DNA from: Azospirillum sp. B510
GTDB taxonomy: Bacteria > Pseudomonadota > Alphaproteobacteria > Azospirillales > Azospirillaceae
Direction of reading: 5' to 3'
Length of the DNA: 64,000 bases
Assembly: GCF_000010725.1 (NCBI RefSeq)
Contig: NC_013854.1
Location: forward strand, 525,001-589,000
A model generated the notes under the pieces. The model made no database searches. It worked only from the letters and a program-made list of their open reading frames with translations, and had not been told where the DNA came from. Below are positions 2,751 to 20,247 of the stretch, piece by piece (the first letter of the stretch is position 1; each line of letters starts with the position of its first letter). Made by a program: the position numbers and the translations under genes.

Positions 2751-2963
2751 TCAGCGTGCTGCTCGGTGGATTTGGATGAGTTCCTTAAGGCTTTCGACGC
2801 CATCTTCGGTCAGGGCATGGAACCACTGCTCGCCTGGGCCGAACACGGCCAGGCAACCGTCCTCCGGCTCCAGCTCGATGGCAATGTCGATCAGCCATTC
2901 GACGTCCTCGCCGAGGATCTCGGCGACGCGCTCCATGGTCACGAGGTTGCGGGTTCTGGCCAT
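2751..2963 (-). CDS. IS66 accessory small protein
   Basis: A 70-residue acidic protein with no assigned function. It begins 6 bases after the tnpC stop on the same strand and ends close to the IS66 end, so it belongs to the element and is probably translationally coupled to tnpC. A gene of this size and position accompanies many alphaproteobacterial IS66 copies (from memory). The sequence is helix-rich with an EILGEDVEWLIDIAIELEP segment near residues 15-33 and GEQWFHALTEDG near 44-55, and no catalytic motif is visible. Confidence 0.7.
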   Translation of the reverse strand: MARTRNLVTMERVAEILGEDVEWLIDIAIELEPEDGCLAVFGPGEQWFHALTEDGVESLKELIQIHRAAR

Positions 2964-2969
2964 GGTTCC

Positions 2970-4614
2970 TCAGGTCGCCGTGGTCGCCTCGTGCAGCCGC
3001 TTCCATTCCCAGGGCAGCAGTTCGTGCAGCTTGGTCTGCGGCAGATCGTTGATGCGGGCCAGGACGTCGGCCAGCCACGCCTGGGGATCGATGTCGTTCA
3101 TCTTTGCCGTCACGATCAGGCTGTACATGGCGGCGGCGCGCTGCCCGCCTCGATCCGATCCGCAGAATAGCCATGCCTTCCTGCCAAGGGCGATTCCACG
3201 CAACGCTCGTTCGGCAGCATTGTTGGTCAGGCAGACCCGTCCGTCACGCAGGAAGCGGGTGAAGCCTTCCCAGCGGGTCAGCATGTAGTCCATCGCCTTG
3301 GCCACCGGCGCGTGCTTCGACATCCCGGCCCGGGCCGTTCGCATCCAGTTTTCCAGTTCCTCGACCTGGGGCTTGGACAGCTCTGTGCGCACCGCCAGAC
3401 GGTCGGCTGCCGAGCGCCCGAGGGCTTCGCGCTCGATGTCGAACAGCGGGTCGATGCGCCGCACCGCCTCCAGCGCCAGCGGAGAAATCGGGGGCGCCCC
3501 CTTGCCGCGCCGCTTGTTGGCGGCGATATCGGCGAGTTCGAAGAATTTCCGACGCGCGTGCGCCCAACACAGGACCTCGGCCACGGGCTCCGGCTGGCGG
3601 CTCGCGTCGTAGAGGCGGTTGTATCCGGCATAGGCGTCGGCCTGCAGCACTCCGGCCCAACCGGCCAGATGTGCCTCGGGATGCCCGCCGCCACGGTCGC
3701 GGGAGTAGTGGAACAGCGCCGCCGGTGCCGCCGCGCCCGCGAAGGGGCGATCGTCGCGCACATAGACCCAGATGCGGCCGGTGTCGGTCTTGCCCTTCGC
3801 CAGCACCGGCACGGTCGTGTCGTAGCTTCGCTGGCCCTTCGGGCTCGCCGTGCAACCGCTCCGCCGCCAGCACATGCGCTGCGAGCCGGTCGAGCAGCGG
3901 CTTCAGCACGCCGCAGGCCGCCCCCACCTGGTCGGCCGCGGTGGACAGGCTGATCTCCATGCCCTCCTTGGCGAAGCGCTCGCACTGGCGGTTCAGCGGC
4001 TGATGCTGGCCGAACTTCTCGAACAGCAGCGTGGCCAGCAGGTTCGGCCCCGCCCAGCCGCGCGGCGTGGTGTGGAACGGTGCCGGCGGCTGGCTGATCG
4101 TCTCGCAGTCCCGGCAGGAGAATTTCTCGCGCACCGTCTGGATGATTTTCCACCGCGCGGGAATGCGCTCGGCCGTCTCGGTCACGCTTTCACCCAGCTT
4201 GCACAGCCGGGTCGAGCCGCAGCATGGGCACACCGCCGGCGCCGGGATCACGACGCGCTCGCGCGGCAGGTGCGCCGGGAACGGCTTGCGCGACGGCGCC
4301 TTGCGGGTGATGCGGGCCGCGCCGGTCGCCTCGGCCACCTGTTCCGCCGCCAGATCGTCCTCGCCGACGCTTGCCTGCGCCTCCTCCAACTGGAATTCGA
4401 GCTGGCCGAGCAGTCGGGAGGTCCGTTCGGAGCGCCGGCCGTAGAGGTCGCGCTGGAGCTTCTCGATCTGGAGCTTCAGGGTGGCGATCAGCGCCTGGTC
4501 GCCGGACCGTTCGGCCCGCGCCTGGGCGGCGTCCGCCTCGGCCAACGCAGCCCGGCCACGCGCTTCGATCAGCGCGGCGCGCAGGGCGTCGATGGTGTCG
4601 GGCAGGGCGTCCAT
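2970..4614 (-). pseudogene. tnpC: IS66 transposase tnpC, broken by 22-nt insertion
   Basis: This is the main DDE transposase of IS66. The N-terminal part reads in one frame from ATG 4614: leucine-zipper-like region at residues about 25-60, then a zinc-finger region CPCCGSTRLCKLGE and CRDCE at 140-200. The C-terminal part reads in another frame from about 3822 to the stop at 2970, with DDRPF, CWAHARRKF and the LTNNAAERALRG segment. Removing exactly 22 bases (3823-3844) restores one 540-codon frame and the family motif LHGDDTTVPVLAKG. The gene is otherwise undecayed, so the insertion looks recent. The first D of the catalytic triad sits at the break. Confidence 0.9.
3823..3844. repeat. 22-nt insertion made of two GAA-loop palindromes
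   Basis: On the coding (minus) strand the insert consists of gcccgaagggc followed by cagcgaagcta: two mini-hairpins, gccc-GAA-gggc and agc-GAA-gct. It lies between cga and cga, which may be a 3-bp target copy. It splits the expected GDD codons of tnpC. I found no second copy elsewhere in the window. Confidence 0.75.
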
Positions 4615-4696
4615 GGGGCCGGATTGTACCCGGAAACCCGCACCGATCCTCGCTCTTCCCGCCGGAGAGCGGCGGGTTGATTCACTGTGCCGCAGC

Positions 4697-5044
4697 CTAT
4701 CCGGCCGAGCGCGGTCTCCAAGTCTGCTGCGGATTGCGCCAGTCGATGGCGTCGAGCAGATACGCGAACTGGGACGCGGAAATGGCCACGGCTCCGCTGG
4801 CCGGGCTGGGCCAGATGAAACGGCCCCGTTCAAGCCTCTTGGCGTACAGCGACATGCCGAGCCCGTCATGCCACAGGCACTTCACCATGTCACCGCGACG
4901 TCCACGGAAGACGTATAAATCGCCGGCATGGGGATCGCGGCCAAGACCCTCCTGGACCTTCAGCGCCAGAGAGTTCATCCCGCAGCGCATGTCGGTGACC
5001 CCGCCCGCCAGCCAGACCCGAACGCCCGAGGGGACCGGGATCAT
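4697..5044 (-). CDS. tnpB: IS66 accessory protein TnpB
   Basis: A 115-residue IS66 Orf2 (TnpB) protein, needed for transposition of IS66 elements although its biochemical role is unclear. The family pattern is present: VWLAGGVTDMRCGMNSLA at residues 10-27, DLYVFRGRRGDMVKCLWHDG at 42-61, and KRLERGRFIWP. The start overlaps the tnpA stop by 4 bases, and tnpC starts about 80 bases after its stop. Length is normal and no damage is visible. Confidence 0.93.
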   Translation of the reverse strand: MIPVPSGVRVWLAGGVTDMRCGMNSLALKVQEGLGRDPHAGDLYVFRGRRGDMVKCLWHDGLGMSLYAKRLERGRFIWPSPASGAVAISASQFAYLLDAIDWRNPQQTWRPRSAG

Positions 5045-5434
5045 GCCGACCGTCCCGACAGCGCGGCGATCACCGTGCCGACCAGGGCCGGATCGACCGG
5101 GCCGGTGATGCGCAAGCGCGCCGTCGCGAATTCGACCTCGATGAGACCGGCTGGTGGGGCCGCTGGCGCCGCTGTCGGCTCTGCCACCTCCTCCGGTGCC
5201 GGAGCGTCGGTGGCGACGGTGATCGGCATGAAGGCGGGCAGCCGGGGCTGCTGACCGAAGAACTGGCGGCGCCAGCGGTACAGCAGGCTGACGTCCACGC
5301 CCAGGCGCCGGGCGACTTCGGTCGCCTTGACGCCCGGCTGGAACGCCTCTTCGACCAGCCGCAGCTTCTCCTCGTCGCTGAACTGCCGCCGCCGCTCCTG
5401 GCCCGTGATCACCTCGACGCGTTGGATAGTCATA
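5041..5434 (-). CDS. tnpA: IS66 accessory protein TnpA
   Basis: IS66 Orf1, about 130 residues from the preferred ATG at 5434 (MTIQRVEVITGQERR). An upstream in-frame ATG at 5469 would add MPVPMAIPMAVP, encoded by a short direct repeat (ccatagggac-type units at 5428-5465). The helix-turn-helix segment FSDEEKLRLVEEAF with VARRLGVDVSLLYRWRRQF spans residues 20-60 and is typical of the family. The C-terminal half is alanine/proline-rich followed by IEVEFATARLRITGPVD. It overlaps tnpB by 4 bases. Confidence 0.9.
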
Positions 5435-5522
5435 GGGACTGCCATAGGGATAGCCATAGGGACAGGCACAATGATTCAGCTTCCCCGCTCGGTCACAAGG
5501 CGGCGCTCGGCGGAGGGGTACG

Positions 5523-5564
5523 CTATAGCGTTGTGCGTTTCATATTAAACGCACAACGCTATAG
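5523..5564. promoter_or_regulatory. 42-bp perfect palindrome, possible IclR-type operator
   Basis: Two 18-bp arms (ctatagcgttgtgcgttt and its complement) surround the 6-nt centre catatt. It lies in the 55-bp gap between the IS66 right end and the IS21 left end. Its core gtttcatattaaac matches 13 of 14 positions of gtttcatatgaaac at 29971-29984. It could be an operator stranded when its gene was lost, or two abutting inverted repeats of a vanished element. Confidence 0.55.
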
Positions 5565-5582
5565 AGCTTCGAGGGTTGCGTA

Positions 5583-5648
5583 TTTCGGCGAATTCGCCCA
5601 GGCGTTTCGGTTGAAAGCGCCCACCGTTTCGGCGAAGCCGCCCACCCG
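5583..5648 (+). repeat. IS21 left-end tandem repeats (3 x 22 bp)
   Basis: Three consecutive 22-bp units at 5583, 5605 and 5627, each starting tttcgg, with a central g(a/c)g/ttgaaagcg-like part and a gcccac/agg end. Multiple terminal repeats of this kind are the transposase-binding sites in IS21-family elements. Confidence 0.8.
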
Positions 5649-5728
5649 AATTGAAAGCTGGTGGGTGCCGGGGCCGAACCCTGGATTTACGTTATGAAGG
5701 TTGTGGGTTTAGTTGCCAAGCACCGGCC

Positions 5729-6486
5729 TTAGGTGTCGGGGGTTTCGCAGGCGGCGTCGGCCTTGGTGCGGCGCATGGGGTCGCCATGCAGGTCGATGCG
5801 GTAGGCCCGGTGCACGAGGCGGTCGAGGATGGCGTCGGCGTAGGTGGCATCGCCGATGAGCCGATGCCAGTTGGCCACGGGAACTTGGGTGGCCAGCATG
5901 GTTGCGGCCCGGTCGTGGCGGTCGTCGATCACCTCCATCAGGTCCAGGCGCTGAGCCGCGGTCAGCTCGGTCATCGCCCAGTCATCCAGGATCAGCAGGT
6001 CGAGCCGGGCGATCCGTCGCAGCAGCCGGGCGAGCGAACCGTCCAGGCGGGCGGTGGCCATATCGTCCAGCAAGGCGGGTCAGCCGGGTGTAGAGTACGC
6101 TGTGGCCTTCCCGCGCCGCCTGGTTGCCGAGTGCACAGGCCAGCCAGGTCTTGCCGATCCCGGTCGGGCCGGTGATCAGAACCGGCCGGTTCTCCGTCAC
6201 CCAACGCCCGGTGGCCAGCTCGCGCACAACACCGCGGTCGAGCCCACGCGGGGTGCGCAGGTCGAGATCCTCCAGGCAGGCAGTCTGGCGCAGCCGGGCG
6301 CGCTTCAGCCGGCTGGCGAGTGCGGTGTTGGCCCGCTCCGCCGCTTCCCGCTCGATCAGCGTGCCCAACTGCTCGTCGAAGGCCAGTTGGCCGCGATCGG
6401 GCAGGCGTTCCAGCGCCTCCAGCCCCTTGGCCATGCCGTACAGCCGCAACTGGCGCAGCCGCTCGTGGTTGACGTGCTTCATCATC
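5729..6486 (-). pseudogene. istB: IS21 helper ATPase istB, one-base frameshift
   Basis: IstB is the AAA+ ATPase helper of the IS21 transposase. From ATG 6486 the protein reads MMKHVNHERLRQLRLYGMAK and continues through the Walker A motif GPTGIGKTWLACALG to LYTRLTRL. It then leaves frame near 6075. The rest (LDDMATARLDGSLARLL, Walker B LLILDDWAM, then TYADAILDRLVHRA) is in another frame down to 5729. One surplus base in the cgcc run explains the break. The joined length of about 250 residues is normal. It could be a true mutation or a sequencing error. Confidence 0.85.
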
Positions 6487-6495
6487 GTGTCTCCG

Positions 6496-8010
6496 TCAGT
6501 GATAGTAGGAAGGGCCGCGCAGATTGGCGTGCTCGCCGGCACCGGCCGGGTCCGCCGACGTGGCGGGGGGCGCCGCCAACCAGCGCTGGACGTAGCGGTA
6601 GGATCCGACGTTGGCCTCCAGCGCCGCCTGGCAGGCCTGCTCCAGCCGGCTGGTGCCGTGGGTGGCCGCTAGGCGGATCAGGCCGATCCCGGCCCGCACC
6701 GCCTGTTCGGGATGATCGGCGCCGGCCAGGATGCGCGCGAACAGCAGCGCGGCGGCCGGGCCGATGGCGGCCAAATCGGCCTGAATGGTGTCGGGGGTGA
6801 AGCGGGCAACGGCCCGGTGGTTGACAGGGCGATGGGCGTCCAGCGTCACGGTGGCGCCATCCTGCCGGCGGACATGGCAGGCCATCCGCTTGCCGCGCAG
6901 GAAGACGCTGATCACGCCGGCAGTGCTGTGCACGTCGACCGTCTTGCCGATCAGCGTGTCGGGCACTGAGTAGACGCCGCCGTCGAGGGCGAGATGATAG
7001 TCGGGCGGCACCTTGTGGCGAGCCCAAGTGCCGGGCACGAAGCGGTCCGGCGGCAAGGGGCGCAGGGTCGGCTTCTCCTCGGTGGCGAACAAGCCGGCGC
7101 GCGTGTCCTGTGGCCTGCGGCTCAAGGGAGCGGCGTTGAGGGTGGCCAGCTTGTCGCGCAAGGCTGCGTTGGCAGCGTCCAACGTGGCGAAGGGCGTATC
7201 GCGCAACGGGGCCAGCACCCGCCGCTCGACCTGCTGCACACCGTTCTCGGCGCTGGGCTTATCGCGTGGGCGCCGGACCCGGGCCGGCAGAACGGCGGTG
7301 CGGTAGTGCCGGGCGAGATCGTGATAGGCCGGGTTGATCGCCGGATCGTAGAAGGAGGCGTGGCTGACGCCGACCTTGAGATTATCCGGCACCAGCTTGC
7401 CCGGCACGCCGCCCAGATGTTCGAACAGCCGGACGTGCGAGGCCAGCCACTCCTCCGCCTGCTGGGTCCAGGTCGCCTCGGCATAGACGTAGCCCGAATA
7501 CGGCAGACAGGCGACAAACACCTGGGCCTGTCGCGCCTCGGCGCCGAGCCCGACGCTCAGCGTCATCCCGGCGTAATCGACCTCGATCGCCGCCCCCGGC
7601 CGATGCTCCCGGCGCAGACGCGGCTCGGCATGGGCACCCTGCCATGCCCGGAAATGCTGGACGAATTGGGTGTAACGATAGCCGCCGGGATGGACCTCCA
7701 GGTATTCCTCCCACAGCAGCCGCAGCGTTACGCCACGGCGGCTGAGTTCACGGCTGATGTGCTGCCAGTCAGGCACCGGGCGCGCCGACGTGACCGGAGG
7801 CGGGAACAGCCGCTCCTCCAACTCGATGTCCGTCCAGCCCAGCACATCCGCGTACCGCAGCCCGGAGGCCCGTAGCCGATCCAGGTAATCGCGCACGGTG
7901 CTGCGCGGCAGCCGGCAGGCATCGGCAATCTGCCGTTGGCTGGCGCCGAACTCATCCCGCAGACGAAGGACTTCTCTGATCCGCCGCATGTCCGAACTCG
8001 CTCGGGGCAT
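6496..8010 (-). CDS. istA: IS21 transposase IstA
   Basis: A 504-residue DDE transposase. The N-terminal helix-turn-helix (MRRIREVLRLRDEFGASQRQ, then STVRDYLDRL) binds the terminal repeats. The catalytic residues are visible as D in AAIEVDYAGMTL (about residue 125), D in LVPDNLKVGV (about 185) and E in RDKPSAENGVQ (about 235). I prefer the ATG at 8010 (MPRASSDMRRI), because the longer frame from 8085 adds residues unlike the family. It ends 9 bases before istB. No damage is seen. Confidence 0.92.
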   Translation of the reverse strand: MPRASSDMRRIREVLRLRDEFGASQRQIADACRLPRSTVRDYLDRLRASGLRYADVLGWTDIELEERLFPPPVTSARPVPDWQHISRELSRRGVTLRLLWEEYLEVHPGGYRYTQFVQHFRAWQGAHAEPRLRREHRPGAAIEVDYAGMTLSVGLGAEARQAQVFVACLPYSGYVYAEATWTQQAEEWLASHVRLFEHLGGVPGKLVPDNLKVGVSHASFYDPAINPAYHDLARHYRTAVLPARVRRPRDKPSAENGVQQVERRVLAPLRDTPFATLDAANAALRDKLATLNAAPLSRRPQDTRAGLFATEEKPTLRPLPPDRFVPGTWARHKVPPDYHLALDGGVYSVPDTLIGKTVDVHSTAGVISVFLRGKRMACHVRRQDGATVTLDAHRPVNHRAVARFTPDTIQADLAAIGPAAALLFARILAGADHPEQAVRAGIGLIRLAATHGTSRLEQACQAALEANVGSYRYVQRWLAAPPATSADPAGAGEHANLRGPSYYH

Positions 8011-8090
8011 CCCGATCCTCCTTGGCCTGTGCCGTGGAAAGATCATGGGGATGCCAAAGGCTGGTTCGGACCCTGACACCACCACCCCTA

Positions 8091-8186: not shown

Positions 8187-8442
8187 GAATCCCATCGAAA
8201 GCGTGTTCGCCACCGTCCGCCACCGGACCGTCCGCACCAAGGGCGCGCGCTCACAAGAAACCGCCAAGCTGATGGTTTTCAAACTGATCACCGCCGCTTT
8301 GAAGACCTGGCGCCGTTTGCAGGGCGAAAACCAGTTGCCCAAGGTCATCCAGGGCGTCACATTCCGCAACGGCATCGAGGTCACCGAGCCCGCGTCACAG
8401 AACGCCGCCTGACCAGACCGTCACCCAGTTTCCCGCATAGCT
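8187..8442 (+). pseudogene. IS256-family transposase, 3' remnant
   Basis: Only the last 75 or so codons remain (8187-8412). They read NPIESVFATVRHRTVRTKGA and continue with LMVFKLITAALKTWRRLQGE, the characteristic C-terminus of IS256/Mutator-type transposases. The 5' part is absent. The reading begins exactly at the right end of IS21, so an IS21 insertion plus a deletion removed it. The bases after the stop (gaccgtcacccagtttcccgcatagctc) resemble an IS256 terminal repeat and probably end the element near 8442, where the next gene is fused to it. Confidence 0.85.
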
Positions 8443-9388
8443 CGGCGCGGGCAAATGCATCATGGAGACCAGCCGTGTCGAGGGAGGGCTCTGGCTCCGC
8501 TTCCAGTATCGGCAGGCTGGCCGGAGTTCGCTTGAGCAGTTCATCCAGCTTGTCGTGGGCACTCTCGACACTCTCCGCCACGGCACGAACAGGATCCGGC
8601 GAATGAGCCCTGCGCAGCAAGCAGCCGGTGTCCCGCAGCCGCATCTCCAGCCCGGCGCGGTCGATGCCCTTGCGGTTGGCCGACAGGCTCTTCGGTGCGT
8701 GGCACAGCGTCACCCACGCCGTCCTTGCGTTCTGTCCATCCGCGAGAACTCGATTGCTCAGCACGGTTTCCATCGCCGTGCGGCCGTGGGTGCCGTCGCC
8801 AAGCTCCAGCACCGTAACCCGGACAAAGGCCAGGAAATGCCGCAGATCGTCGTCGGTCGCGACGGACTTGAATTCCTCTTGCCAGAGGGCGCGCAGGAGA
8901 CTCAGCAGACTGGTCAGCGCCTGCTTTTCCTTCGTGTTGGCAGCCGCGCGTTCGATGGATGCCGCCGGCGGCAGGCCTGCCATCCGCGACAACACCTCGC
9001 GCAGACGAGCGCGGACGGTCTCTGGGCTTTCCGGCCCGACGGCAAGCACGATGCGGTCGCGTGCCGCATCGAGAGGACGGTGTGGATCGGTGGCCCCGGC
9101 GGCGTGCTGGCGCAGGAACTGCCGCCAGGTCTTGCCCATTTCGGAGGCCGGACGCGCGGAGTGCTCGATCCGTTCGTCGGTGTCCTGGCCGGTTTCGCTG
9201 GCCACATGCTCGAGCGAGGTCGAGTTTGGTAGCCCGAAAGGTGTTGCTCCGGCGAGCAGGTGGACGAAAAGATCGGCGCCCACCTCATCCTGGAAGCGGC
9301 CGCCCCCGGACATGGCGGCGCCACCGGCACTCTGCCGGTCGGCCTTGCCGCCGACGTTGCTCCCGCTGGACTTTGGTGCTTTTGCCAT
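8381..9388 (-). pseudogene. Truncated STAND-like defence gene, 5' part
   Basis: About 335 codons from ATG 9388. The residues up to about 316 are native; the last 18 or so (DGLVRRRSVTRAR) are read out of the IS256 remnant, so the 3' end of the gene is lost. The N-terminal pattern RFQDEVGADLFVHLLAG at residues 32-48, then GLPNSTSLEHVASETGQDTD, GKTWRQFLRQ and RPLDAARDRIVLAVGPES resembles the N-terminus of very large STAND-type ATPases with a Cap4-like nuclease domain (from memory). The D-x(n)-QxK nuclease core expected between ETGQDTD and GKTWRQF is missing. The gene lies 87 bases after yhaN on the same strand, so it was probably part of that operon. Function of the fragment is unknown. Confidence 0.5.
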
Positions 9389-9475
9389 GATCACTGGATA
9401 ACCGCAGGGTGATTATGGGTTTTCCCTGTGGTATGCCCTATTATGCTGGCTGACGGAACCCGTCGCCGATGTTGT

Positions 9476-12400
9476 TCACAACTCAAGTCGCGCCAGTCCG
9501 TCGACCGCCTGCCCCATGTTGCGCAAATGGGCATGATGGGTGAAGAACAGCACCTGCGTCGAGGCGGCAAGCCCAGCAAGGACGTTCAAACCGGCTTCCG
9601 CGCGGTCGTCGTCGAAATTGACGAACAGGTCGTCGGCGATGAAGGGAACCCGCACACCAGCGGCAATCGACTGTTCGACCGCCGCCAGTCGCAGAGCGAG
9701 GAACAGCTGATCCCTCGTGCCCTCGCTCATGCCTTCGATGGAGACAAGGGTCTCCCCATCCTGCCGCAGCCCCAGCAAACGCGGTGTCGATGGATCGTGA
9801 TCGATCCGGAAGTCGACGAAGCGTCCGAGGGTCAATGTGCGGAAAAGCGTGCCGGCGCGCGTCAGCAACGGCGCCTGCCGGCGCGCGCGGTATTGTTCGA
9901 CCGCGCGGCTCAACAGAAGCTGCTGCGCCCGTTTGAGCACATAGAGGTCCGCCTCGGCCTTCATGTCCGCCTTTGCCGCCTCCGCGTCGGCCGCGGCATC
10001 GGCCGCGCCATGGGAGGACTGGCCCAGGCTCTGGAACACCATCCGGGCCTCACCAAGCGCATTGGCCGCTTCGGCCACCTCCTTGTTCAGCGCTTCTAGC
10101 GTCTGGCCCAATGTGGCCGACTGGGAGGCCACCATGTCGGGATCGCAGGCTTCCCAGGCGGCGATGAGATCGGCAAGCGGCAGAGCGTCGCCATCCGCGA
10201 CGATCTGCCGTTCGGCCTCAGCCAGCCGGGCAAGGCGTTCCTGATGGGCTTTCGACCGGTCGAGGAGCGGAGGCAGAAGCGCGACCTCGGCAACTTCGGC
10301 GCGGTTCATGAAGGAGCCCAGGCGATCGAGTGCGATGGTTCGATCGATGGCGGCGCGATCCATGTCCGCCTGATGCTTCTTCCGCTCGGCCTCCAGCGTC
10401 TCGACCTCCTGTGCGACCGAACGCGCCTTGGCCAAACGCTCCCGAAGAGCGTCGAGCGTCCGCATCGGGTCTGCCTGTACGTCCATCTGCGCGTCGGCTG
10501 CCAGCGCCTCCACCTCCGCGTCGAAGGACTTGCGGTCCTTGCCGATGATGTCGAGCCTGCGGTCGTGTGCGGAGATTCCGTCAAGGATGCCCCGCAATTC
10601 CTCGACCAGTTCGAGCCAGTGGTCGATACCCGCGATGTCCGCGGCGATTCCCAGCCGCGCCGATGCCTCGGTCCAGTCGGTGACCGCAGCCTGCAAGGCC
10701 CGGCGATCCTGGATGTCCTGCCGCTCGCAACGGGAGATACTCTCCTCCAGGGCGGCGAGCTTGGCGTTTTTCTCGCGGAACGCCTGCTCCAGGATCTCGC
10801 CCTTCATCCGTTCACGGTCGGCAGCCGCCAGCAGCGGCGACAGCCGGTCGTTCTCCGGCGAAACCGTCAAGGCCCTTGCAAGGATGCCGACCGCTTCGGC
10901 CCTGCGTTCCATCAGGCGCGCGGCCTGCCGCCGGGCCTCGGCCGTCTGGCGATGAAGATCCAGCGCGGCGCGACGTTGGGCAAACCAGGCGCGCAGCCTC
11001 AGCGGCGTCAGGGGCGGCAGTCCTTGCGCGCGAAGGCGGTCTTCCCAGGAGATCGTTTGTGCGGATAGCGCGCTCTCAGCCTCCTGTACGGCCTTTTCCG
11101 CCTGCTGCCGCGTCAAATCCAGGAGGGCCTGCTGGTGGTCCAGGGCAGTCAGGCGCGCGGACTCCTCGGCGGTCGCGTAGCGGCGGTCGGCGATGGCGTC
11201 GGCGTCCTGAAGCGCCGCCGTGAAATCGTCGCCGAGCGCCTGGGCCTCCGCGGCGCGGCCCTGCCGCAAATGGGTGCCGATGGCCGTCCACAGATCATCC
11301 CGCGCCTGCCGCGCCCTAAGAACCTTGTCCGCCGACACCGCCTGCCCGGTTTGAGCCAGCAAGCCGCGCTGGGTTCCGAGCTGTTCGATCTCGTTTTCCA
11401 AGCGGCGGAGTTCGGCCTGGTCGCTTTCCAATCTGGTGGCGAGCTTGAGTTCCGCATCGGAGGCGGCCTGGAGTTCTCCATCATCGAATTCGCAGAGCAT
11501 GGCCAGCCGGTCGGCGCCGCCCTGCCAAGGAGCAAGGGCCGCCAGCGCCAGCTGCGTCTCGGCGTCCGCGCGCTCGATGTCTGCCTGGGCTTCGGCACAA
11601 CGGTGGTCGATGTCGTCGCCCAGCCCACGGGCAAGACCGATCACGGCCCGGAGCTCGTCCAGCCCTTCGGCGACGACCGCGTCGGCCAGGTCCTCGCGCA
11701 GTGTCCGGGCATCGGTCCGCAGGTTTTCGAGCTCCCCATCCCGCGCCCCCAGGCCGTCGGCGAGGCTGAGGTGACGTTTGGCGATGTCGCGAAGCTTCCT
11801 GACCTCAAGGCCGGATGGCAGGTCGCCGGGTAGGGTCAGTTCCGTGCGCAGGGATGTCGCGCGTTCCAGCAGCCCTTGCCGCTCGACCGTCAGCCGGTCC
11901 AGATCGGTGACATCCTTGGTGATCCCGCCCCGCTTTTCGATCAGGCGCTCGATGTGCTCGCCAAGCGCGGCGATGGAATCTGGTTGGAGCCGGCTCAGCT
12001 TTTCCGCCATGTCGTCGCGGTGCCGCTTGGCCGCATCATGGGCTTCGCCCGCCTTCGTCAGGGCCGCCAGCAAGGTCCGCGCCGCGGTATCCTCCGCGGG
12101 TGAGAAGACGGTCACCGCTCCTTCCGCGGCGATCTCGGCCAACAGGGCGGCCCGCGACCGCATTGCGGTGCCGATGCGGCGCAGCCGTTCGGCGTCGTCG
12201 CGCTGGGCGGTCAGCGTATTCTGCCGTTGCAGCAGATCCCGAAGGGTCTGTTCGCAAGCCTCGACCTTCGCCTGCGCGTCGGACCATTCCTTGGGTCTGA
12301 GCTGCGCCTCGCGCATGGTTTTCAAACAGGCATCGAGTTGCCTTTCCGCGGCAACGAAGGTCCGACGGGCGGCAGCGCGCTTGCCCCAGATCGCATCCAG

Positions 12401-12901
12401 TTCGTTGTCGAGCGCCTCACGAACCTTGCTGATTTCCGTCAGTCCGGATCCGGCGGCGAACAGGGCCTGCCCCAGATCGTCCGAAGCCTGAAGCATTGCT
12501 TCGCCGCCGTTGCGCAGTCCGGCTTGGTCCAGGCTGAAGCCGGCGCTGAAGGTTTCGCGGTTCAGGCCGTGCAGCAGGGCCGACAGTTGACCTTCATCCA
12601 GGGGGCGGTCCGTCGCATCGATCAGGCTCTGGTCTCGGGACTTGCGGCGCCGGCAGGCCAGGTGCCGTCCATCCTCCTCGAGCACCGCGCCGATGCGCAG
12701 AAGCGCGTAATCGAAGCGGAAATTGAAGGGGCTGCGCATCGGAAAGCCGAACAGCAGGTCGGAGACGGCCGAGAGAGTGGTCGATTTTCCCGCCTCGTTG
12801 GGGCCGTAGACCATATGGAAATCGGGAGCTCCCGCCTGGAAGGGCAGGCGGCAATCCTCGAAATGGCCATAGCGTTCCAGATGGAGTTCGGCAAACCGCA
12901 T
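9476..12901 (-). CDS. yhaN: YhaN-family SbcC/Rad50-like ATPase
   Basis: A 1141-residue ABC-type ATPase with long coiled coils, the Rad50-like partner of the adjacent YhaO nuclease. The N-terminus MRFAELHLERYGHFEDC leads to Walker A GPNEAGKST (residues 35-43). Residues about 170-1000 are charged helical segments with E/R/A heptads. The C-terminal half-site has SIEGMSEGTRDQLFLALRLA (signature region) and Walker B FIADDLFVNFDDDR near 1095, then FFTHHAHL. No CxxC zinc hook is seen in the middle, which fits YhaN rather than SbcC/Rad50. The ATG at 12901 lies in TGATG with the yhaO stop, so the two are translationally coupled. Likely role: opening and processing DNA ends together with YhaO, in repair or phage defence. 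Confidence 0.88.
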   Translation of the reverse strand: MRFAELHLERYGHFEDCRLPFQAGAPDFHMVYGPNEAGKSTTLSAVSDLLFGFPMRSPFNFRFDYALLRIGAVLEEDGRHLACRRRKSRDQSLIDATDRPLDEGQLSALLHGLNRETFSAGFSLDQAGLRNGGEAMLQASDDLGQALFAAGSGLTEISKVREALDNELDAIWGKRAAARRTFVAAERQLDACLKTMREAQLRPKEWSDAQAKVEACEQTLRDLLQRQNTLTAQRDDAERLRRIGTAMRSRAALLAEIAAEGAVTVFSPAEDTAARTLLAALTKAGEAHDAAKRHRDDMAEKLSRLQPDSIAALGEHIERLIEKRGGITKDVTDLDRLTVERQGLLERATSLRTELTLPGDLPSGLEVRKLRDIAKRHLSLADGLGARDGELENLRTDARTLREDLADAVVAEGLDELRAVIGLARGLGDDIDHRCAEAQADIERADAETQLALAALAPWQGGADRLAMLCEFDDGELQAASDAELKLATRLESDQAELRRLENEIEQLGTQRGLLAQTGQAVSADKVLRARQARDDLWTAIGTHLRQGRAAEAQALGDDFTAALQDADAIADRRYATAEESARLTALDHQQALLDLTRQQAEKAVQEAESALSAQTISWEDRLRAQGLPPLTPLRLRAWFAQRRAALDLHRQTAEARRQAARLMERRAEAVGILARALTVSPENDRLSPLLAAADRERMKGEILEQAFREKNAKLAALEESISRCERQDIQDRRALQAAVTDWTEASARLGIAADIAGIDHWLELVEELRGILDGISAHDRRLDIIGKDRKSFDAEVEALAADAQMDVQADPMRTLDALRERLAKARSVAQEVETLEAERKKHQADMDRAAIDRTIALDRLGSFMNRAEVAEVALLPPLLDRSKAHQERLARLAEAERQIVADGDALPLADLIAAWEACDPDMVASQSATLGQTLEALNKEVAEAANALGEARMVFQSLGQSSHGAADAAADAEAAKADMKAEADLYVLKRAQQLLLSRAVEQYRARRQAPLLTRAGTLFRTLTLGRFVDFRIDHDPSTPRLLGLRQDGETLVSIEGMSEGTRDQLFLALRLAAVEQSIAAGVRVPFIADDLFVNFDDDRAEAGLNVLAGLAASTQVLFFTHHAHLRNMGQAVDGLARLEL

Positions 12902-14163
12902 CACTCTGTCTCCTTACCGGTGAGGCGGGCTTCCAGCGCACTTCCCGCAATCGCCAACAGAGCCTGCCAGTCGTCCCGTGTCGCCATGGCGGCGAGGCTG
13001 TCCTCGTCGAATTCCCCGGCCCTGGCCGCCGCGGTCAGGAAGGGAAGGAGGTCCGCCTTCAGGTCCTGGGCCAGTTCCGGCGATTGGCGGACCTCGGCCA
13101 GCAGAGCCATGATGTCCTCCGCGGCCCCGTCGGCGACCGGCGCCGAACCGGGCATGGTGACGTCCAAATGAACCTTTTCGATCCACAGGTCCGGCGCGAC
13201 CGCGGCGGCCAGGGCGCGCACGGTGTCGCGCTGGGTCGCCCGTCCGTCCTGAAGTTTGCCGGCCAGGGACGTCGAGCCGGTCAGCACCACACGGGCGACG
13301 GTCGGACGTCCGTCGGACAGTTCGGCATGCCGGTTGGCGAGGGCGGTGCGGATCGCGGCGTCGATCTCGTCCGGCTTGCTGATTCCGGTGCAGTCCACCT
13401 TCACCCGAAGCCAGCGCACGGTGTCCAGCGGCACATGGGTCAGACGGGCGACGGCGCCGTCCTCCACCTCCACATGGACAGCCCCCTTCGGTCCGGTCTC
13501 CCGGATGTTCCGGCCCTGGAGGTTGCCGGGGAACACGATGTAGGGCGATTCGGCGACGACGGTGAAGTCATGCACATGCCCCAGCGCCCAATAGTCGTAA
13601 TGGCGGGCCCGCAGATCGTCGATGGTGCAGGGTGCGTAGGTCGCGTGTCCCGGATGGCCAGTCAGCGCGGTGTGAAGAAGGCCGATGTTGAAATGATGCT
13701 CCACCCGGTCGGGATAGCCGGCGGCGAGATTGTCGGTGACATGGGCATTCGGAAAGCTCTGCCCGTGGATCGCGACGCCCAGATGGTCGATGACGTGGGT
13801 GTGCGAGCGGCGCGGCCTGAACTGCTTCACGGTGTCCGGCCAAGGCAGCGACCGGGTCAGGGCGGAGGCCGCATCATGATTTCCGGACAGCCAATAGACC
13901 GGGATGCCTGCCGCCGCCAGCCTTCCCATCGCGCGGGCGAAGTAGAGACCGGTGCCCATGTCCTTCCAGTCGCCGTCGAACAGGTCGCCGGCGATCAGCA
14001 CGAAATCCACCGCCTGATCGCAGGCATAGGCGACCAGATTGTCGAAGGCCGCCCGCGTCGCGCCACGCACTTCCTCCGCCGGCACCCCGTCGTAACGTGA
14101 CAAGCCGTGCAAGGGGCTGTCGAGGTGGATATCGGCTGCGTGGAGGAAGTGGAAACTGCCCAT
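12901..14163 (-). CDS. yhaO: YhaO-family metallophosphoesterase (Mre11/SbcD-like)
   Basis: A 420-residue calcineurin-like nuclease subunit. Phosphoesterase motifs are visible in order: HAADIHLDSP (residues 8-17), IAGDLFDGDW (about 56), LSGNHDAAS (about 92), GLLHTALTGH (about 170) and WALGHVHDF (about 203). These supply the two-metal site. The C-terminal 150 residues form the capping/ATPase-contact region and diverge from SbcD. ATG 14163 is preferred over the TTG two codons upstream because gaggg lies 7 bases before it. It is the first gene of a minus-strand operon (yhaO, yhaN, truncated STAND-like gene) and is divergent from the large helicase gene. Confidence 0.88.
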   Translation of the reverse strand: MGSFHFLHAADIHLDSPLHGLSRYDGVPAEEVRGATRAAFDNLVAYACDQAVDFVLIAGDLFDGDWKDMGTGLYFARAMGRLAAAGIPVYWLSGNHDAASALTRSLPWPDTVKQFRPRRSHTHVIDHLGVAIHGQSFPNAHVTDNLAAGYPDRVEHHFNIGLLHTALTGHPGHATYAPCTIDDLRARHYDYWALGHVHDFTVVAESPYIVFPGNLQGRNIRETGPKGAVHVEVEDGAVARLTHVPLDTVRWLRVKVDCTGISKPDEIDAAIRTALANRHAELSDGRPTVARVVLTGSTSLAGKLQDGRATQRDTVRALAAAVAPDLWIEKVHLDVTMPGSAPVADGAAEDIMALLAEVRQSPELAQDLKADLLPFLTAAARAGEFDEDSLAAMATRDDWQALLAIAGSALEARLTGKETE

Positions 14164-14225
14164 AGCCAACCCTCGATTTTCGAATATAGTGCGAAATCAC
14201 TCTACTTCAGGCGGTGGACATCATC
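14164..14225. promoter_or_regulatory. Shared divergent promoter with imperfect palindrome
   Basis: The 62 bp between yhaO and the helicase gene must hold both promoters. It contains gattttcg-aatatagtg-cgaaatc (14174-14198), a near-perfect inverted repeat of TTTCG/CGAAA. TATAGT reads as a -10 on the plus strand and its complement is TATATT-like on the minus strand. An overlapping palindrome would allow one regulator to control both directions. Confidence 0.5.
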
Positions 14226-17200
14226 ATGGAATCGACCGTAGGCGTCAACGTTATGGAGTCTCGTACTGAAACAGCGAGTTCCGCGCTGGCGATCGACGCC
14301 GTGATCACTCCCAAAATCAGCTTCGCCACCCATCAGAGCGCCGTTCCTGTCCTTCGTGATCTCCGCCTGATCAACCTGGGTGGAGAGCCGCTGCAAAACA
14401 TCGTGGCCGAGATCCTGGCCGACCCGCCGGTCTTCGAGCCGGTGCAATGGCGCATCGACCGCATCGCCGCAGGTGGCGAGGCGCACATCACCAAGCGCGA
14501 CCTGCGGCTGAACGCCGGATTGCTGTTCCAGTTGAACGAAGCGATCCGTGCGACGGTGACGCTGCGGGCCACGGCGGAGGGCATGGATGGCGGCGATGCC
14601 GCCGAGCGCGTGCTGCCGGTCGAGCTGCTGGCCCGTAACGAATGGGGCGGTGCCTCGGCGATGCCGGAACTGCTGGCCGCCTTCACCCTGCCGAACGACC
14701 TGGCCGTCAGCAGACTGATCAAGGCGTCGAGCGACGTGCTGCGGCGCGGCGGCCGCCCGGACGGCATCGAGGGATACCAGTCGAAGAGCCGCACGCGGGT
14801 GCATGAACTGGCCTCAGCCATCTGGTCGGCCGTGGCGTCCCTGCGCCTGACCTATGCCGAACCGCCGGCCAGCTTCGAATGGCAGGGACAGAAGGTGCGT
14901 TCGCCCTCCCAGATTCTGGAGACCGGGCTGGGGACGTGTCTCGACACGGCGCTGCTGTTCGCGGCGGTGCTGGAGCAGGCCGGCCTTTATCCGGTGATCG
15001 TCGTTACGCGCGGCCATGCCTTTGCGGGCGTGTGGCTGCAACCGCAGGAGTTCGCCACCCTTCTGGTCGATGACGCCGCCAGCCTGCGCAAGCGCGTGGC
15101 GCTCCAGGAGCTGGTGCTGTTCGAAACCACTTTGGCCACCGGCGGGCACCCGTCGCCCTTCTCGCGCGCCATCGCCCAGGCCAACCGCCAGATCGACGAG
15201 GAGCGCGAGGGCGAGTTCGTCATGGCGCTCGACATCCGCCGCGCCCGGATGCAGCGCCTGCGCCCGTTGGCTCTGGCGGAAGCCGCATCGTCGGGGACGG
15301 GGCAGGGGACGGCGGAAGCCGACATCGTCCCGATGGGGGATGTCCTCGAAGCGGCTCCGGCCCTGCCCGATTTCGATCTCACCGAGTCCAGCGAGACGCG
15401 GGACGGGGTCGCCACGGCGGAAGGACGGCTGGACCGTTGGCAGCGCAAACTTCTGGACCTCACCACGCGCAACCGGCTGCTCAACGTCAAGCCGGGTGCG
15501 ACCAGCATCCGCCTGATCTGTCCCGATCCGGCCACGCTGGAGGACAGGCTTGCCGACGGCGCCAGCTTCCGCGTCGTGGCGGCCCCGGCGATGGACGGGG
15601 GGGCCGGCCGCGACACGAATTTGCACCTCCAGCGCACGGGAGAGGAGCTGGAGGCCGCCTATGCCCGCGACGCCATGGAGCGCGGCGAGATCCTGTCGCC
15701 CATGCCGACCGACAAGCTCGATGCGCAACTGGTCGACCTATACCGCAAGACACAGCTCGATCTGGCAGAGGGCGGCGCCAACACGCTGTTCCTCGCGGTG
15801 GGCTTCCTGGTCTGGAAGAAATCCGGCAGCGACACGCGCCATTACCGCGCCCCGATCATCCTGTTGCCGGTGAAGCTGCAAAGGCGCAGCGCACGGTCGG
15901 GTGTGCGTCTGTCCAGCCACGAGGACGAACCACGCTTCAACCTGACCCTGTTGCAGATGCTGCGCCAGGATTTTGAACTCGACATTCCCGAGCTGGCCGG
16001 GCCGTTGCCGGTCGACGAGTCCGGGATCGACGTTCCGCGCATCTGGACCCTGGTCCGCCGGGCGGTGCGCGACATGCCGGGCTTTGAAGTGGTCGAGGAC
16101 GTGGTGCTGGGCGCCTTCTCCTTCGCCAAATACCTGATGTGGAAGGATCTGGTCGACCGCACCGACGCCTTGAAGCGCAATCCGGTGGTGCGGCACCTGC
16201 TGGAAACGCCACGCGACGCCTATGCCGGCCAAGGGGAGCCGCCCCAGCCGTCAAAGCTGGACGAGCTTGTCGCGCCGGAGGAGCTGTTCGCGCCGCTCGC
16301 CGCCGACTCCTCCCAGCTGGCGGCGGTTGTCGGCTCGGCGCAGGGATGCGACTTCGTGCTGGATGGCCCGCCGGGCACCGGCAAGTCGCAGACCATCGCC
16401 AACATGATCGCCCACAATCTGGCGCTTGGCCGCACCGTGCTGTTCGTCGCGGAAAAACGGGCGGCTCTGGACGTAGTCCATCGCCGGCTGGTTGCTCATG
16501 GCCTTGGTCCGTTCTGCCTTGAGCTGCACAGCAACAAGGCATCCAAGCAGGATGTCCTGCGCCAGCTCGACGCCGCATGGACCACGGCGGAGGTGCCGCC
16601 GGCCGAGCTGTGGAGCCGCCGCGCGGCCGAACTCAAGACCAGTCGCGATCGGCTGAACGATTTCGTCCGGGCGCTGCACCGGCGGCACGCCAACGGCCTT
16701 ACCCTCTATAGCGCCATCGGGCGGGTCGCCCGGGACGGCGCGGCCGCCGCGTTGCGTCTGACGTGGACGAGAGGGATGGAGCACGCTGAAACAGATCTGG
16801 AAAGCCTGCGGGACACCGCCCACAGGCTGGATCTGCACCGCGCGACGGCATCGCCGGAGAACCGGGCCGCCTTCGGGCATATCGGGCGGACCGAATGGTC
16901 GAACGCTTGGCAGGCCGAGTTGCTGGCCGCTGCCGCCGCGCTAGCCACCGCCTCCAAGACATTGGAGTCGGCCCGCGCCCGGCTCGCCGACGGGCTCGGT
17001 ACCGCTGTGGGTGGAGACCGGCGCGGCCTTGCCGCTGCCGCCGCCCTGGCCCACGCCCTGGGAGAGGTCGGTGAGCTGAATCTGGGATTCGCCTTCACGC
17101 CCGATGCGGCCAGGATGATCGAGCAGGGCACGCGGGTGCTGCCGTTGCTCGGTGCATATCGGACGGAGGCCGCGCTGCTCTCTCGCCCGATGGATCCCGA

Positions 17201-19940
17201 GCGGGTCAAAGCCATGCCCCTGGCGGAACTCGATGCCGAATGGGCAGCGGCGGGCGAGGCGATCTGGCCACTGTCGTCGCTGCGGAAGAAGGCGGTGGCG
17301 AAGCGGCTCGACCCCAGCGGGACCGCTGATCCGGAGACCGATCTTCCCCGGCTGCGCCGGTTGCAGGAAATCCTGGCCGAGATCGACGGCCTTCCCCAGG
17401 CGCAAGCGCTTCCCGGCTGGCGCGGAGTCGCCACCGATCCGGACCGGCTGGACCGCAAGCTGAAGGCTGCCGGAACGGTGCGGGCGGCGCTTGGCGGTGC
17501 TGCGCAAAGCCCCGATCAGCTGATCGCCCTGCGGACATCGCTCAAGCGGCTCTGCACCGAGGCCGGTGACCTGCTGGCCCCCGAAGGGGTGGTCGGGCAG
17601 GCGATGCGGCAGTATCTCGACAGCCATGCCGCCTTCCTGGATGCCAAGGACGCGTTCGAATGCACCGCCGGTGCGCCGGAACCGGTCGACGGCGCCGATC
17701 TGTTGGCGGAGTGTCAGACCATCGCCGCGGCGATGGCGGCGCGGCCGACGCAGCTGAATGCCTGGACGGCGTGGCAGCGCGCGCGGCAGGCTGCGGTGCA
17801 GCAGGGATTGGACGGGCTGGTGGCGGCGGTGGAGAATGGCACCGTCCCGCCCGGCCTTGCGGCGGAGGCCTTCGACATCGCCTATGCCCGCTGGTGGGCG
17901 GACTGGGCGATCGACATCGAACCGCTGGTTCGTGACTTCAACGTCACCGAACACACGGATACCATCGGCCGCTTCCGCGCTCTGGATCACGAGTTCGGCG
18001 AACTGACGCAACTCTATATCCGTGCCCGGATCGCCGGCGGCATCCCGGCCAAGGACTCGAAGTCGCCGCCCGCCGGCTTCGGCACGCTGGCGCATCAGTT
18101 GAAGCTGCAGAAGCGGCACAAGCCGGTCCGCCAGCTGGTGGCGGAGATTGGGCCGGCGCTGACCACGCTGACCCCCTGCCTGCTGATGAGTCCGCTGTCG
18201 GTGGCACAGTTCCTGCCGCCGGAGATGCCGCCGTTCGATCTGGTCATCTTCGACGAGGCATCGCAGATCACGCCGTGGGACGCGGTGGGCGCCATCGCCC
18301 GCGGCCGGCAGCTGGTGGTCGCCGGCGATCCCAAGCAGATGCCGCCGACCAGCTTCTTCGATCGCGGTGCCGGTGCGGAGGACGATGACAGCGAGATCGA
18401 AACCGATCAGGAAAGCATCCTGGAGGAGTGCCTGGGCGCCCGCCTGCCGCAACGCCGCCTGACCTGGCATTACCGCAGCCGGCACGAAAGCCTGATCGCC
18501 TTCTCCAACCACCGTTACTATGACGGCGACCTGATCACCTTCCCCGCCCCGGTGACGCGGGAGACGATGGTCAGCCTGCGGCAGGTCCCCGGCGCCTGGT
18601 CGCGCGGCAAGAACCGCAACAACCAGACCGAGGCCGAGGCGGTGGTGAGGGAGGTTCTGCGGCGCCTTCTCGACCCCGCCTTCGTCGATGAACGGGGCAA
18701 CCGCCTGACGCTTGGGGTCATCACGCTGAATTCGGAACAGCAGAAGCTGATCGAGGATCTGCTGGACCGCGCCCGGCGGCGCTACCCCGAACTGGAGCCC
18801 TATTTCGCCGAGGATGCGCCTGAGCCCGTCGTGGTCAAGAATCTGGAGACGGTCCAGGGCGACGAGCGCGACGTGATCCTTCTGGGCATCGCCTATGGGC
18901 CGGAAACGCCCGATGCCCCAACGATGCCGATGAATTTCGGGCCACTGAACCGCGACGGCGGCTGGCGGCGACTCAACGTCGCCATCACGCGGGCGCGTCG
19001 GGAGATGGTCGTCTTCACCTCCTTCCCGCCCAACCTGATCGATCTCAACCGCACCAGCTCGTCCGCCCTGCGGGATCTGCGGCATTTCCTGGAATATGCG
19101 GAGCGGGGAACGCGGACCTTGGGGGAGGCGGCCGGCGCGTCCGCCGGTTCGGCGAACTCCCATTTCGAGCAGGCGGTTGCACAGGGACTGGGCGGGCGCG
19201 GCTGGACGGTGGTTCCGCAGGTCGGGGTGTCCCGCTTCCGCATCGACCTCGGCGTGGTGCATCCCGATCGTCCGGAAGATTATCTGATCGGCATCGAATG
19301 CGACGGTGCGTCCTATCACGGTGCCGCAACGGCGCGGGACCGCGACAAGGTGCGCGAGGCGGTGCTGAGGGGACTGGGCTGGTCCCTGGCGCGGGTATGG
19401 TCGACAGAGTGGTGGATCGATCCGGAGGGGGCGCTGGACCGGCTCGACGCCGCGCTGAAGGAGGCCTTGGAACGGTCCACGTGCCGAAGCGGTCGCCGCG
19501 CCTGTGACGGCGGAGGCGCCGGATGTGGTGCTCGATCTGGGGGCGGACGGAGAGGATGGCTCCGACGAGGCCGAGACCCCGATGGAAACCGAGGACGACC
19601 AAGCGGCCTATGGCGGGGAGTATCGGCGGACGGATTTCGGCGCCATCGCCGGCATCGATCCGGACCGGTTCCAGGAGAACGACTATTCCGCCATTCTCAA
19701 GGAGATGGTGTTGCAGGTCGTCGCGGCGGAGGCGCCGATCCGCGACAGCCTCCTGGTCGAGCGCATCGCCCGCGCCCATGGATTCAAGCGTTCCGGCCGC
19801 CAGATCCGGGAGCGGATCATGGCGGTGGCGCGCGGTGTCGCCCATGTCGAGACCGAGCATACCGGCGCCAGCTTCGTCTGGCCGGACGCGATGGTGGTCG
19901 CGGCGTGGGAAACGGCCCGGTTTCCCAACACTGGCGCTGA
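14226..19940 (+). pseudogene. DUF4011 / SF1 helicase / Vsr-like nuclease giant, frameshifted near 3' end
   Basis: Genuine coding runs from ATG 14226 (SD caggcggtgg 8 bases upstream) to about 19482, roughly 1750 residues. Domains in order: a transglutaminase-like Cys/His segment (GTCLDTALLFAAVLEQAGL, then GHAFAGVW, residues 235-275); DUF4011 (RWQRKLLDLTTRNRLLN, about 405); SF1 helicase core with Walker A DGPPGTGKSQT (about 712), Walker B LVIFDEASQI (about 1338), AGDPKQMPPTSFF, LTWHYRSRHESLIAFSN, VKNLETVQGDERD and RRLNVAITRARREM; then a Vsr/MTES_1575-type nuclease (FRIDLGVVHPDR, GIECDGASYHG, about 1670-1740). After 19482 the frame becomes Gly/Arg-rich nonsense, while the DUF3320 tail continues in another frame. 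Proteins of this architecture have been reported as single-gene anti-phage systems (Hhe, as I recall). Likely role: recognising and cutting foreign DNA. Confidence 0.88.
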
Positions 19941-20118
19941 TGTCCGATCCATCGAGGACATCGCCCTGCCCGAGCTGTCGGCCGCCATCCGCGGCTGCAT
20001 CGATGTCGACGATCCGCTGACGGGTGCGGCCCGACAGTTCGGCATCAGAAGGCTGAATTCAGCGGCCCGCGACCGGCTAAAGATGGCGAAGCCGCTCGAG
20101 GGGCATATCAGGGAGTAA
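19504..20118 (+). pseudogene. DUF3320 C-terminal domain separated from the helicase by frameshift
   Basis: 204 residues from GTG 19504 with the DUF3320 pattern: EAPIRDSLLVERIARAHGFK at about 75-95, then RSGRQIRERI and FVWPD. In this family DUF3320 is the C-terminus of the DUF4011-helicase protein. Extending this frame back to 19483 gives AEAVAAPVTAEAPDV, which joins naturally to LKEALERST of the upstream frame if one base near 19482 is removed. The piece might be made separately from the GTG, or by slippage, but no strong ribosome site is seen. The end is intact (stop at 20118). Confidence 0.75.
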
Positions 20119-20243: not shown

Positions 20244-20247
20244 AATC

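What the first reader, a model, noticed from the sequence alone, without database searches (positions are those of the whole stretch)
8381..20118. Composite defence-type locus: YhaO/YhaN divergent from a DUF4011-helicase-nuclease giant
The sequence directly shows an Mre11-like nuclease, a Rad50-like ATPase coupled to it, and, across about 60 bp, a roughly 1,950-codon DUF4011/SF1-helicase/Vsr-like/DUF3320 protein. From memory, the giant alone resembles the Hhe anti-phage type and YhaON are usually seen as housekeeping repair proteins. Their head-to-head pairing between insertion sequences and a tRNA fragment suggests one multi-gene system in which YhaON processes DNA ends made or exposed by the helicase-nuclease. 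I infer this from layout.
Basis: partly seen in the sequence, partly recalled or inferred. Interest (0 to 1): 0.8.

Follow-up and report, generated by a model that had tools for sequence, protein, structure and literature searches.

The report
ProA–YhaON head-to-head phage-defence cassette
In an Azospirillum genome a giant gene of the anti-phage ProA family, frameshifted in this copy, lies head to head with a pair of Mre11–Rad50-like genes; this three-gene set recurs in several bacterial lineages and likely acts as one virus-defence cassette, although most relatives of the giant that were examined lack the pair and no function has been tested.

Summary
The giant (14214-19940 +) is over the cut-off of NCBIfam's "anti-phage protein ProA" (2123.6 bits, cut-off 1500) and far under that of Hhe (796.6 vs 2000). 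This copy is frameshifted before DUF3320; relatives are intact. It also carries an unreported N-terminal module: an Ig-like sandwich plus a predicted transglutaminase-like domain with a conserved Cys-His-Asp/Glu triad. YhaO has all five Mre11-type motifs; YhaN has Walker motifs but no zinc hook.

The pairing is real but optional. Of the 79 nearest ProA loci, 5 have complete adjacent yhaON and 1 a remnant. A clade of Azospirillum, Sphingomonas and Brevundimonas has the pair or its remnant in 7 of 7 rows. The link recurs separately in Microvirga, Paraburkholderia and two unnamed lineages, in three gene orders. In four Azospirillum genomes the shared block is essentially yhaN-yhaO-proA, in different flanks, ending near a tRNA-Met 3' end in at least two, suggesting island cargo.

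Best reading: a likely mobile cassette in which YhaON would process DNA ends made by ProA. Against: most ProA and YhaON genes examined stand apart, and YhaON also sits beside other defence genes. New variant of a known kind.

The parts
14214..19940 (+). proA-type giant ORF (1908 aa as it stands; family match ends at residue 1757, about 19484; likely start ATG 14226)
   Evidence: NCBIfam NF058533 2123.6 bits, cut-off 1500; DUF4011, AAA_11/AAA_12, REase_MTES_1575
14286..14633 (+). Ig-like beta-sandwich (ProA residues 25-140)
14646..15263 (+). predicted transglutaminase-like domain with Cys242, His268, Asp286/287 (ProA residues 145-350)
15447..15962 (+). DUF4011 (residues 412-583)
   Evidence: PF13195 157 bits
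16314..19016 (+). SF1 helicase (Walker A GPPGTGKS 718-725, DEAS 1347-1350; residues 701-1601)
   Evidence: Pfam AAA_11/AAA_12/AAA_19; motif residues in 101-103 of 103 ProA rows; PDB sequence kin SMUBP-2, Sen1, Dna2
19164..19457 (+). REase_MTES_1575 restriction-endonuclease-like domain (residues 1651-1748)
   Evidence: PF18741 117.3 bits
19504..20118 (+). C-terminal piece with DUF3320, in another frame (frameshift just upstream)
   Evidence: PF11784 60.4 bits; NF058533 positions 1739-1903, 99 bits; frame comparison
14164..14225 (.). 62-bp divergent intergenic region between yhaO and proA
12901..14163 (-). yhaO: Mre11/SbcD-like metallophosphoesterase
   Evidence: PF00149 47.7 bits; five motifs conserved in 51 YhaO rows
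9476..12904 (-). yhaN: Rad50-like AAA_27 ATPase, no zinc hook
   Evidence: PF13514 251.8 bits; Walker A/B residues and no CxxC
8381..9394 (-). N-terminal remnant of a STAND/NTPase defence candidate (PDC-M54A); 87% identical to the start of a 1646-aa protein in G301
   Evidence: PDLC04700 120.9 bits
20225..20243 (+). 3' end of tRNA-Met(CAT), candidate attachment site at the right edge of the cassette
1211..8085 (-). three transposase ORFs (DDE_Tnp_1_4 1211-2551; IS66-type 3244-4869; rve/Mu-type 6496-8085)
   Evidence: Pfam

Best explanation
This is a three-gene cassette, proA divergent from yhaO-yhaN, likely mobile and predicted to be an anti-phage system in which ProA would unwind and cut invading DNA while the Mre11-Rad50-like YhaON would process the ends. 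Shown: the gene order, the domain matches, the recurrence of the link in several lineages and three gene orders, the co-inheritance in one ProA clade, and a shared block limited to these genes in four Azospirillum genomes. Predicted: the transglutaminase-like fold; its triad suggests a cysteine enzyme, perhaps a protease that regulates or executes the response. Inferred: phage DNA as target, end-processing by YhaON, and its accessory rather than essential role, since most ProA genes examined stand alone. The copy in this window is probably impaired, because DUF3320 is out of frame; relatives are intact.
For: ProA family by curated score. Of the 79 nearest ProA loci, 5 have full yhaON and L008 keeps a YhaO remnant at the same divergent position. 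In the ProA tree (103 rows; 19 rows under 1300 residues dropped) the Azospirillum + Sphingomonas + Brevundimonas clade is 7 of 7 linked or remnant. On the YhaO tree (89 rows, 10 linked) starred branches force 6 changes of the link. Co-directional yhaO-yhaN-proA in G266 and DUF4011 giant-yhaO-yhaN in G473 are operon-like. Four Azospirillum loci share about 10.7 kb and no other block over 200 bp in the 3.3-5.9 kb held around the relatives; window and L186 also share the STAND stretch. Near-CCA tRNA-Met-like right edges. Neighbours of ProA in 78 loci: yhaO at 24-57 bp or overlapping in the four divergent cases, whereas the other most recurrent family lies at 220-4185 bp. Pairwise identities of ProA and YhaO correlate over 8 linked loci (Spearman 0.77, Mantel p 0.0006). 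Catalytic motifs intact.
Against: 73 of the 79 nearest ProA loci have neither yhaON nor its remnant (18 of 78 hold less than 4.6 kb upstream; L015 and L084 have weak, partial phosphoesterase hits without YhaN), and the 79 are the best of 462 confirmed stretches, so more distant ProA kin were not examined. Only 3 of 58 other YhaO genomes in the class and phylum samples have an adjacent ProA-family gene, two of them near-identical. Four orphan YhaO rows branch inside the group that holds the window and Brevundimonas, so the pair comes apart. YhaON also stands beside an EruA-type NACHT gene (L276) and near BREX, Shedu, MmeI or AbiEii genes. Species kinship was not removed from the correlation. 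No activity data.
Confidence: 0.45

Rival explanations
1. Independent co-residents: ProA is a complete one-gene system and YhaON a separate mobile DNA-end nuclease module; both gather in defence islands and share a cassette without working together.
For: Most ProA loci examined lack yhaON. Plasmid-borne YhaON without ProA lies near BREX and Shedu genes, a MmeI-type enzyme and AbiEii, AbiEii and Tn3; the other four plasmid regions opened show no ProA either. A STAND gene or remnant and an EruA-like gene also flank Azospirillum cassettes.
Against: Close, conserved head-to-head spacing in one clade, operon-like orders in two other lineages, a shared block limited to these genes in four flanks, and 6 forced changes of the link on the YhaO tree.
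Confidence: 0.3
2. YhaON is the sensor and ProA the effector: YhaN-YhaO would bind foreign DNA ends, as SMC/Rad50-like parts of other systems are thought to do, and switch on ProA's nuclease or transglutaminase-like domain.
For: YhaN keeps its ATPase motifs but lacks a zinc hook. The same YhaON lineage stands by different giants: a DUF4011 giant in G473, an EruA-type NACHT protein in its close kin G543, as a swappable sensor would. Conserved Cys-His-Asp/Glu triad in ProA.
Against: ProA occurs without YhaON nearby in most loci examined, so it would have to sense by itself there. The analogy with Lamassu is recalled; YhaN scores only 18.5 bits to LmuB.
Confidence: 0.15
3. YhaON here is a housekeeping repair pair that happens to lie beside a defence gene.
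For: YhaO occurs in 21 of 37 non-Azospirillum genomes of the order sample, none of the 17 regions opened there holding a ProA-family gene; their neighbours were not annotated. The housekeeping role is recalled.
Against: In Azospirillum YhaO is patchy: 6 of 45 genomes, 4 of them at 84-100% identity and all 4 with adjacent ProA.
Confidence: 0.1

Closest known systems
NCBIfam NF058533 anti-phage protein ProA
   Same: Match over the curated cut-off, up to the frameshifted end; DUF4011, SF1 helicase, REase, DUF3320.
   Different: Here and in its closest kin it is paired with yhaO-yhaN. Whether the ProA report mentions this is unknown: no paper with the name was found in the held library.
Hhe (NF042953, PDLC02194)
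   Same: Shares helicase/nuclease segments.
   Different: 796.6 bits against a cut-off of 2000; not a member.
PADLOC PDC-S37
   Same: 1116.5 bits over residues 403-1756; the partner in G473 scores 1863.
   Different: Its match starts after ProA's N-terminal transglutaminase-like module.
YhaO/YhaN and SbcCD/Mre11-Rad50
   Same: Five phosphoesterase motifs in YhaO; Walker A/B in YhaN.
   Different: Below the curated cut-offs of the SbcD and Mre11 models it matches; no zinc-hook CxxC in the window's YhaN or in 50 of 53 rows.
Lamassu and other SMC/Rad50-based defences (PMC10586767, search listing with start of abstract only)
   Same: Concept of a Rad50-like ATPase in immunity.
   Different: YhaN matches LmuB at only 18.5 bits; LmuA and LmuC were not looked for separately.

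Membership tests
ProA (NF058533) | score above NCBI's curated cut-off of 1500 bits | tested here: met
   2123.6 bits, model 1-1712
ProA (NF058533) | C-terminal segment with DUF3320 in the same reading frame | tested here: not met
   In this window it lies in another frame; in frame in A. agricola and A. endophyticum. So this copy is a damaged (or mis-sequenced) ProA gene.
ProA (NF058533) | anti-phage activity | not testable with these tools
   needs phage challenge
Hhe (NF042953) | score above the curated cut-off of 2000 bits | tested here: not met
   796.6 bits
Mre11/SbcD-type nuclease | five metallophosphoesterase motifs | tested here: met
   key D/H/N residues in 50-51 of 51 YhaO rows; Metallophos over cut-off
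SbcD (TIGR00619) | score above the curated cut-off of 77.65 bits | tested here: not met
   45 bits
Rad50 | zinc-hook CxxC | tested here: not met
   no CxxC in P0003; 3 of 53 rows hold one anywhere
YhaN (AAA_27, PF13514) | score above Pfam's cut-off | tested here: met
   251.8 bits, cut-off 22
transglutaminase-like superfamily (ProA 145-350) | fold match | tested here: inconclusive
transglutaminase-like superfamily (ProA 145-350) | Cys-His-Asp/Glu triad | tested here: met
   C 89 of 94, H 89 of 90, D/E (residue 287) 89 of 90 non-gap rows of 103
Lamassu | LmuB-type SMC protein with LmuA/LmuC | tested here: inconclusive
   YhaN 18.5 bits to LmuB; LmuA/LmuC not looked for separately

The most novel reading that the evidence does not exclude
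YhaO-YhaN is a mobile, partner-swapping module of bacterial immunity: one Mre11-Rad50-like unit that docks onto different giant defence proteins (ProA, PDC-S37-type DUF4011 helicases, EruA-type NACHT proteins) and supplies them with DNA-end sensing or processing, while ProA adds a transglutaminase-like cysteine enzyme as a second effector.
Probability: 0.25. Interest if true: 0.78.

Novelty: new variant of a known kind. Interest (0 to 1): 0.55.

Why it matters
I found the ProA name only in a family library; no paper on it turned up in the held open-licence papers. If YhaON is its recurrent partner, a protein pair usually filed under DNA repair (recalled) becomes part of immunity, and the co-directional gene sets in G266 and G473 give ready constructs to test it. 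The predicted transglutaminase-like domain makes a second effector activity directly testable by mutating one cysteine.

Tried and rejected
Hhe label: rejected by score. 8381-9394 as a third yhaON gene: rejected, it is a STAND remnant. Conserved frameshift as a programmed event: rejected, because A. agricola and A. endophyticum stay in one frame. Whether it is a sequencing error cannot be told. A different fixed partner of ProA: neighbour clustering of 78 loci found no other family in four or more bacterial families at fixed close spacing. Literature: no paper on ProA, HyoA or EruA as anti-phage proteins in the held library; YhaO with YhaN gave 6 papers, none on phage by title; DUF4011 appears in a P. 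aeruginosa hotspot paper as a flanking core gene (PMC10250203, passages); PMC13092281, PMC12458937 and PMC9519451 were looked at by term search only and hold no 'DUF4011'; a search on YhaN, Rad50, Mre11 and phage defence listed four papers, none holding 'YhaN'. Whole-model fold comparison was dominated by the Ig-like domain, hence the second model. Fold rows other than transglutaminase-like ones (menin, LapD-related, axonemal chains) appear among the matches. Tree rows dropped: 19 ProA rows under 1300 residues and near-duplicate loci; L274 as a copy of L273. In one search the L007 row misses its ProA through an over-long ORF call (one search shows it), and L205, L284 and L289 gave no YhaN call. 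Limits of the genome samples: only the first 2-6 candidates per genome were scored in the class and phylum searches, thresholds differ (E 1e-100 class and order, 1e-150 phylum), and not all ProA-family hits pass the ProA cut-off (11 of 26 class, 32 of 45 phylum, 11 of 14 order genomes do). Chance estimates (both genes in 8 of 288 class genomes, expected 1.65; 9 of 397 phylum genomes, expected 4.65) leave the window's genome out but ignore kinship and defence-island clustering.
Full report
WHAT IS THERE. The window lies in contig 1 of a 7.6-Mb, 7-contig genome. Its two closest loci are Azospirillum agricola and A. endophyticum (ProA best segment 96% and 97%); they are the same DNA as loci from genomes G291 and G301 (100% over 17.5 kb), which are listed as 'same genus', so the window is taken to be an Azospirillum. 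Three genes form the finding: yhaN (9476-12904 -), yhaO (12901-14163 -) and, 62 bp away and divergent, a giant ORF (14214-19940 +).

THE GIANT. Pfam gives DUF4011, SF1 helicase domains and REase_MTES_1575. NCBIfam puts it over the cut-off for 'anti-phage protein ProA' and under that for Hhe. PADLOC's best model is the candidate family PDC-S37. In this copy the family match stops at residue 1757 and DUF3320 continues in another frame; A. agricola and A. endophyticum keep frame over the same landmarks, and ORFs of 1956-1982 aa are seen in linked kin. So this copy is damaged or mis-sequenced.

THE PAIR. YhaO keeps the five Mre11-type motifs; in 51 YhaO rows the key residues are present in 50-51. 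In 53 YhaN rows the Walker A Gly-Lys (39, 40) and Walker B Asp-Asp (1091, 1092) are present in all; a zinc-hook-type CxxC is absent from the window's YhaN and from 50 of the 53.

DOES THE PAIRING RECUR? The 79 ProA loci examined are the best of 462 confirmed stretches in public genomes. Of them, 5 have complete yhaON (L007, L009, L010, L011, L012) and L008 keeps a YhaO remnant in the same divergent place. 60 of 78 hold at least 4.6 kb upstream, so a few may be missed. Starting from YhaO instead: in a sample of 289 genomes of the class, YhaO is in 20 and a ProA-family gene in 26, both in 9, adjacent in G000 and G266. In 398 genomes of the phylum, YhaO is in 43 and a ProA-family gene in 45, both in 10, adjacent in G000 and in the near-identical pair G473/G618, with G651 about 9 kb from YhaO to the giant. 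Leaving the window's genome out, that is 3 adjacent of 58 distinct YhaO genomes. In 82 genomes of the order, YhaO is in 27 and a ProA-family gene in 14; the four YhaO genes that are 84-100% identical to the window's (its own included) are all next to ProA, while six other Azospirillum genomes have a ProA-family gene and no YhaO. Among plasmids, Paraburkholderia phymatum pBPHY02 has the divergent pair about 1.1 kb apart; only the top 40 of 454 ProA records and 50 of 247 YhaO records were listed, and 8 YhaO regions were opened, of which this one holds ProA.

TREES. On a ProA tree of 103 rows the window's clade (four Azospirillum, two Sphingomonas, one Brevundimonas) is linked or remnant throughout, and the three other links (Microvirga, P. 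phymatum, G266) fall elsewhere. On a YhaO tree of 89 rows the ten linked rows need 6 changes, all forced by starred branches: the Azospirillum-S. caeni group, Brevundimonas, P. phymatum, Microvirga, G266 and G473; four orphan rows branch between Brevundimonas and the first group, so these two may be one old link with loss. Three gene orders occur: divergent; yhaO-yhaN-proA (G266, Microvirga); and giant-yhaO-yhaN with 71 bp between giant and yhaO (G473). Pairwise identity of ProA and YhaO correlates over 8 linked loci, without removal of species kinship. YhaO of G473 and of G543 are close kin, yet the former follows a DUF4011 giant and the latter is divergent from an EruA-type NACHT protein: the module seems to change partners.

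MOBILITY. The four Azospirillum loci share about 10.7 kb, roughly from the yhaN stop to just after the proA stop; no other block over 200 bp is shared in the flanks held, except that the window and L186 also share the STAND stretch. In the window the right end is a tRNA-Met 3' end; in L187 the printed sequence shows the same with one difference from an intact tRNA-Met, and in L186 a more diverged version (judged by eye; a scan allowing 2 mismatches found only the window copy). In two relatives the intact tRNA-Met stands about 100 bp after a 5S rRNA gene; the window has 23S and 5S at its left end but no tRNA there. The chromosomal flank right of about 20.41 kb is found at 75-88% identity in 14 of 44 other genomes of the genus, including G301, where it is on another contig than the cassette. 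So the cassette is likely cargo at the end of islands that enter tRNA-Met. Three transposase ORFs lie to the left.

HOW IT LIKELY WORKS. Shown: anatomy, recurrence, co-inheritance. Inferred: ProA acts on foreign DNA with its helicase and nuclease domains, and YhaON trims or degrades the ends. YhaON would be an accessory, since most ProA genes examined lack it. The main rivals are co-residence without cooperation and YhaON as the sensor. Nothing here measures activity.

VERDICT. A new variant of a known kind: a ProA anti-phage gene with a recurrent Mre11-Rad50-like partner.

Noticed in passing
window 8381-9394 (-): N-terminal remnant of a STAND/NTPase defence candidate (PDC-M54A), complete (1646 aa) directly after yhaN in G301 (L186 14339-19279).
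   Followed up: partly
L188 16552-19899 and 3147-5835: In G292 the cassette is flanked by an EruA-like NACHT gene (959.6 bits, cut-off 1000) and by a JukA-like and a PIN/VapC-like gene.
   Followed up: partly
L276 4547-8647 (-): EruA-type NACHT gene (1383 bits, cut-off 1000) about 400 bp upstream of and divergent from yhaO in G543.
   Followed up: partly
L283 13976-19129 (-): 1717-aa protein with RecQ-type and UvrD-type helicase parts, tail to tail with yhaN in G703.
   Followed up: no
L301 (G290:C23, about 34.7 kb): Same island-end sequence plus tRNA-Met 3' end as at window 20211-20280, in a genome without a ProA-family or YhaO hit: probably another island of the same family with other cargo.
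   Followed up: no
G000:C2:13386-17492: A HyoA-like NACHT protein (980 bits, cut-off 1200) elsewhere in the window's genome.
   Followed up: no
window 29416-29636 (-): Cobalamin riboswitch, 118.8 bits.
   Followed up: no
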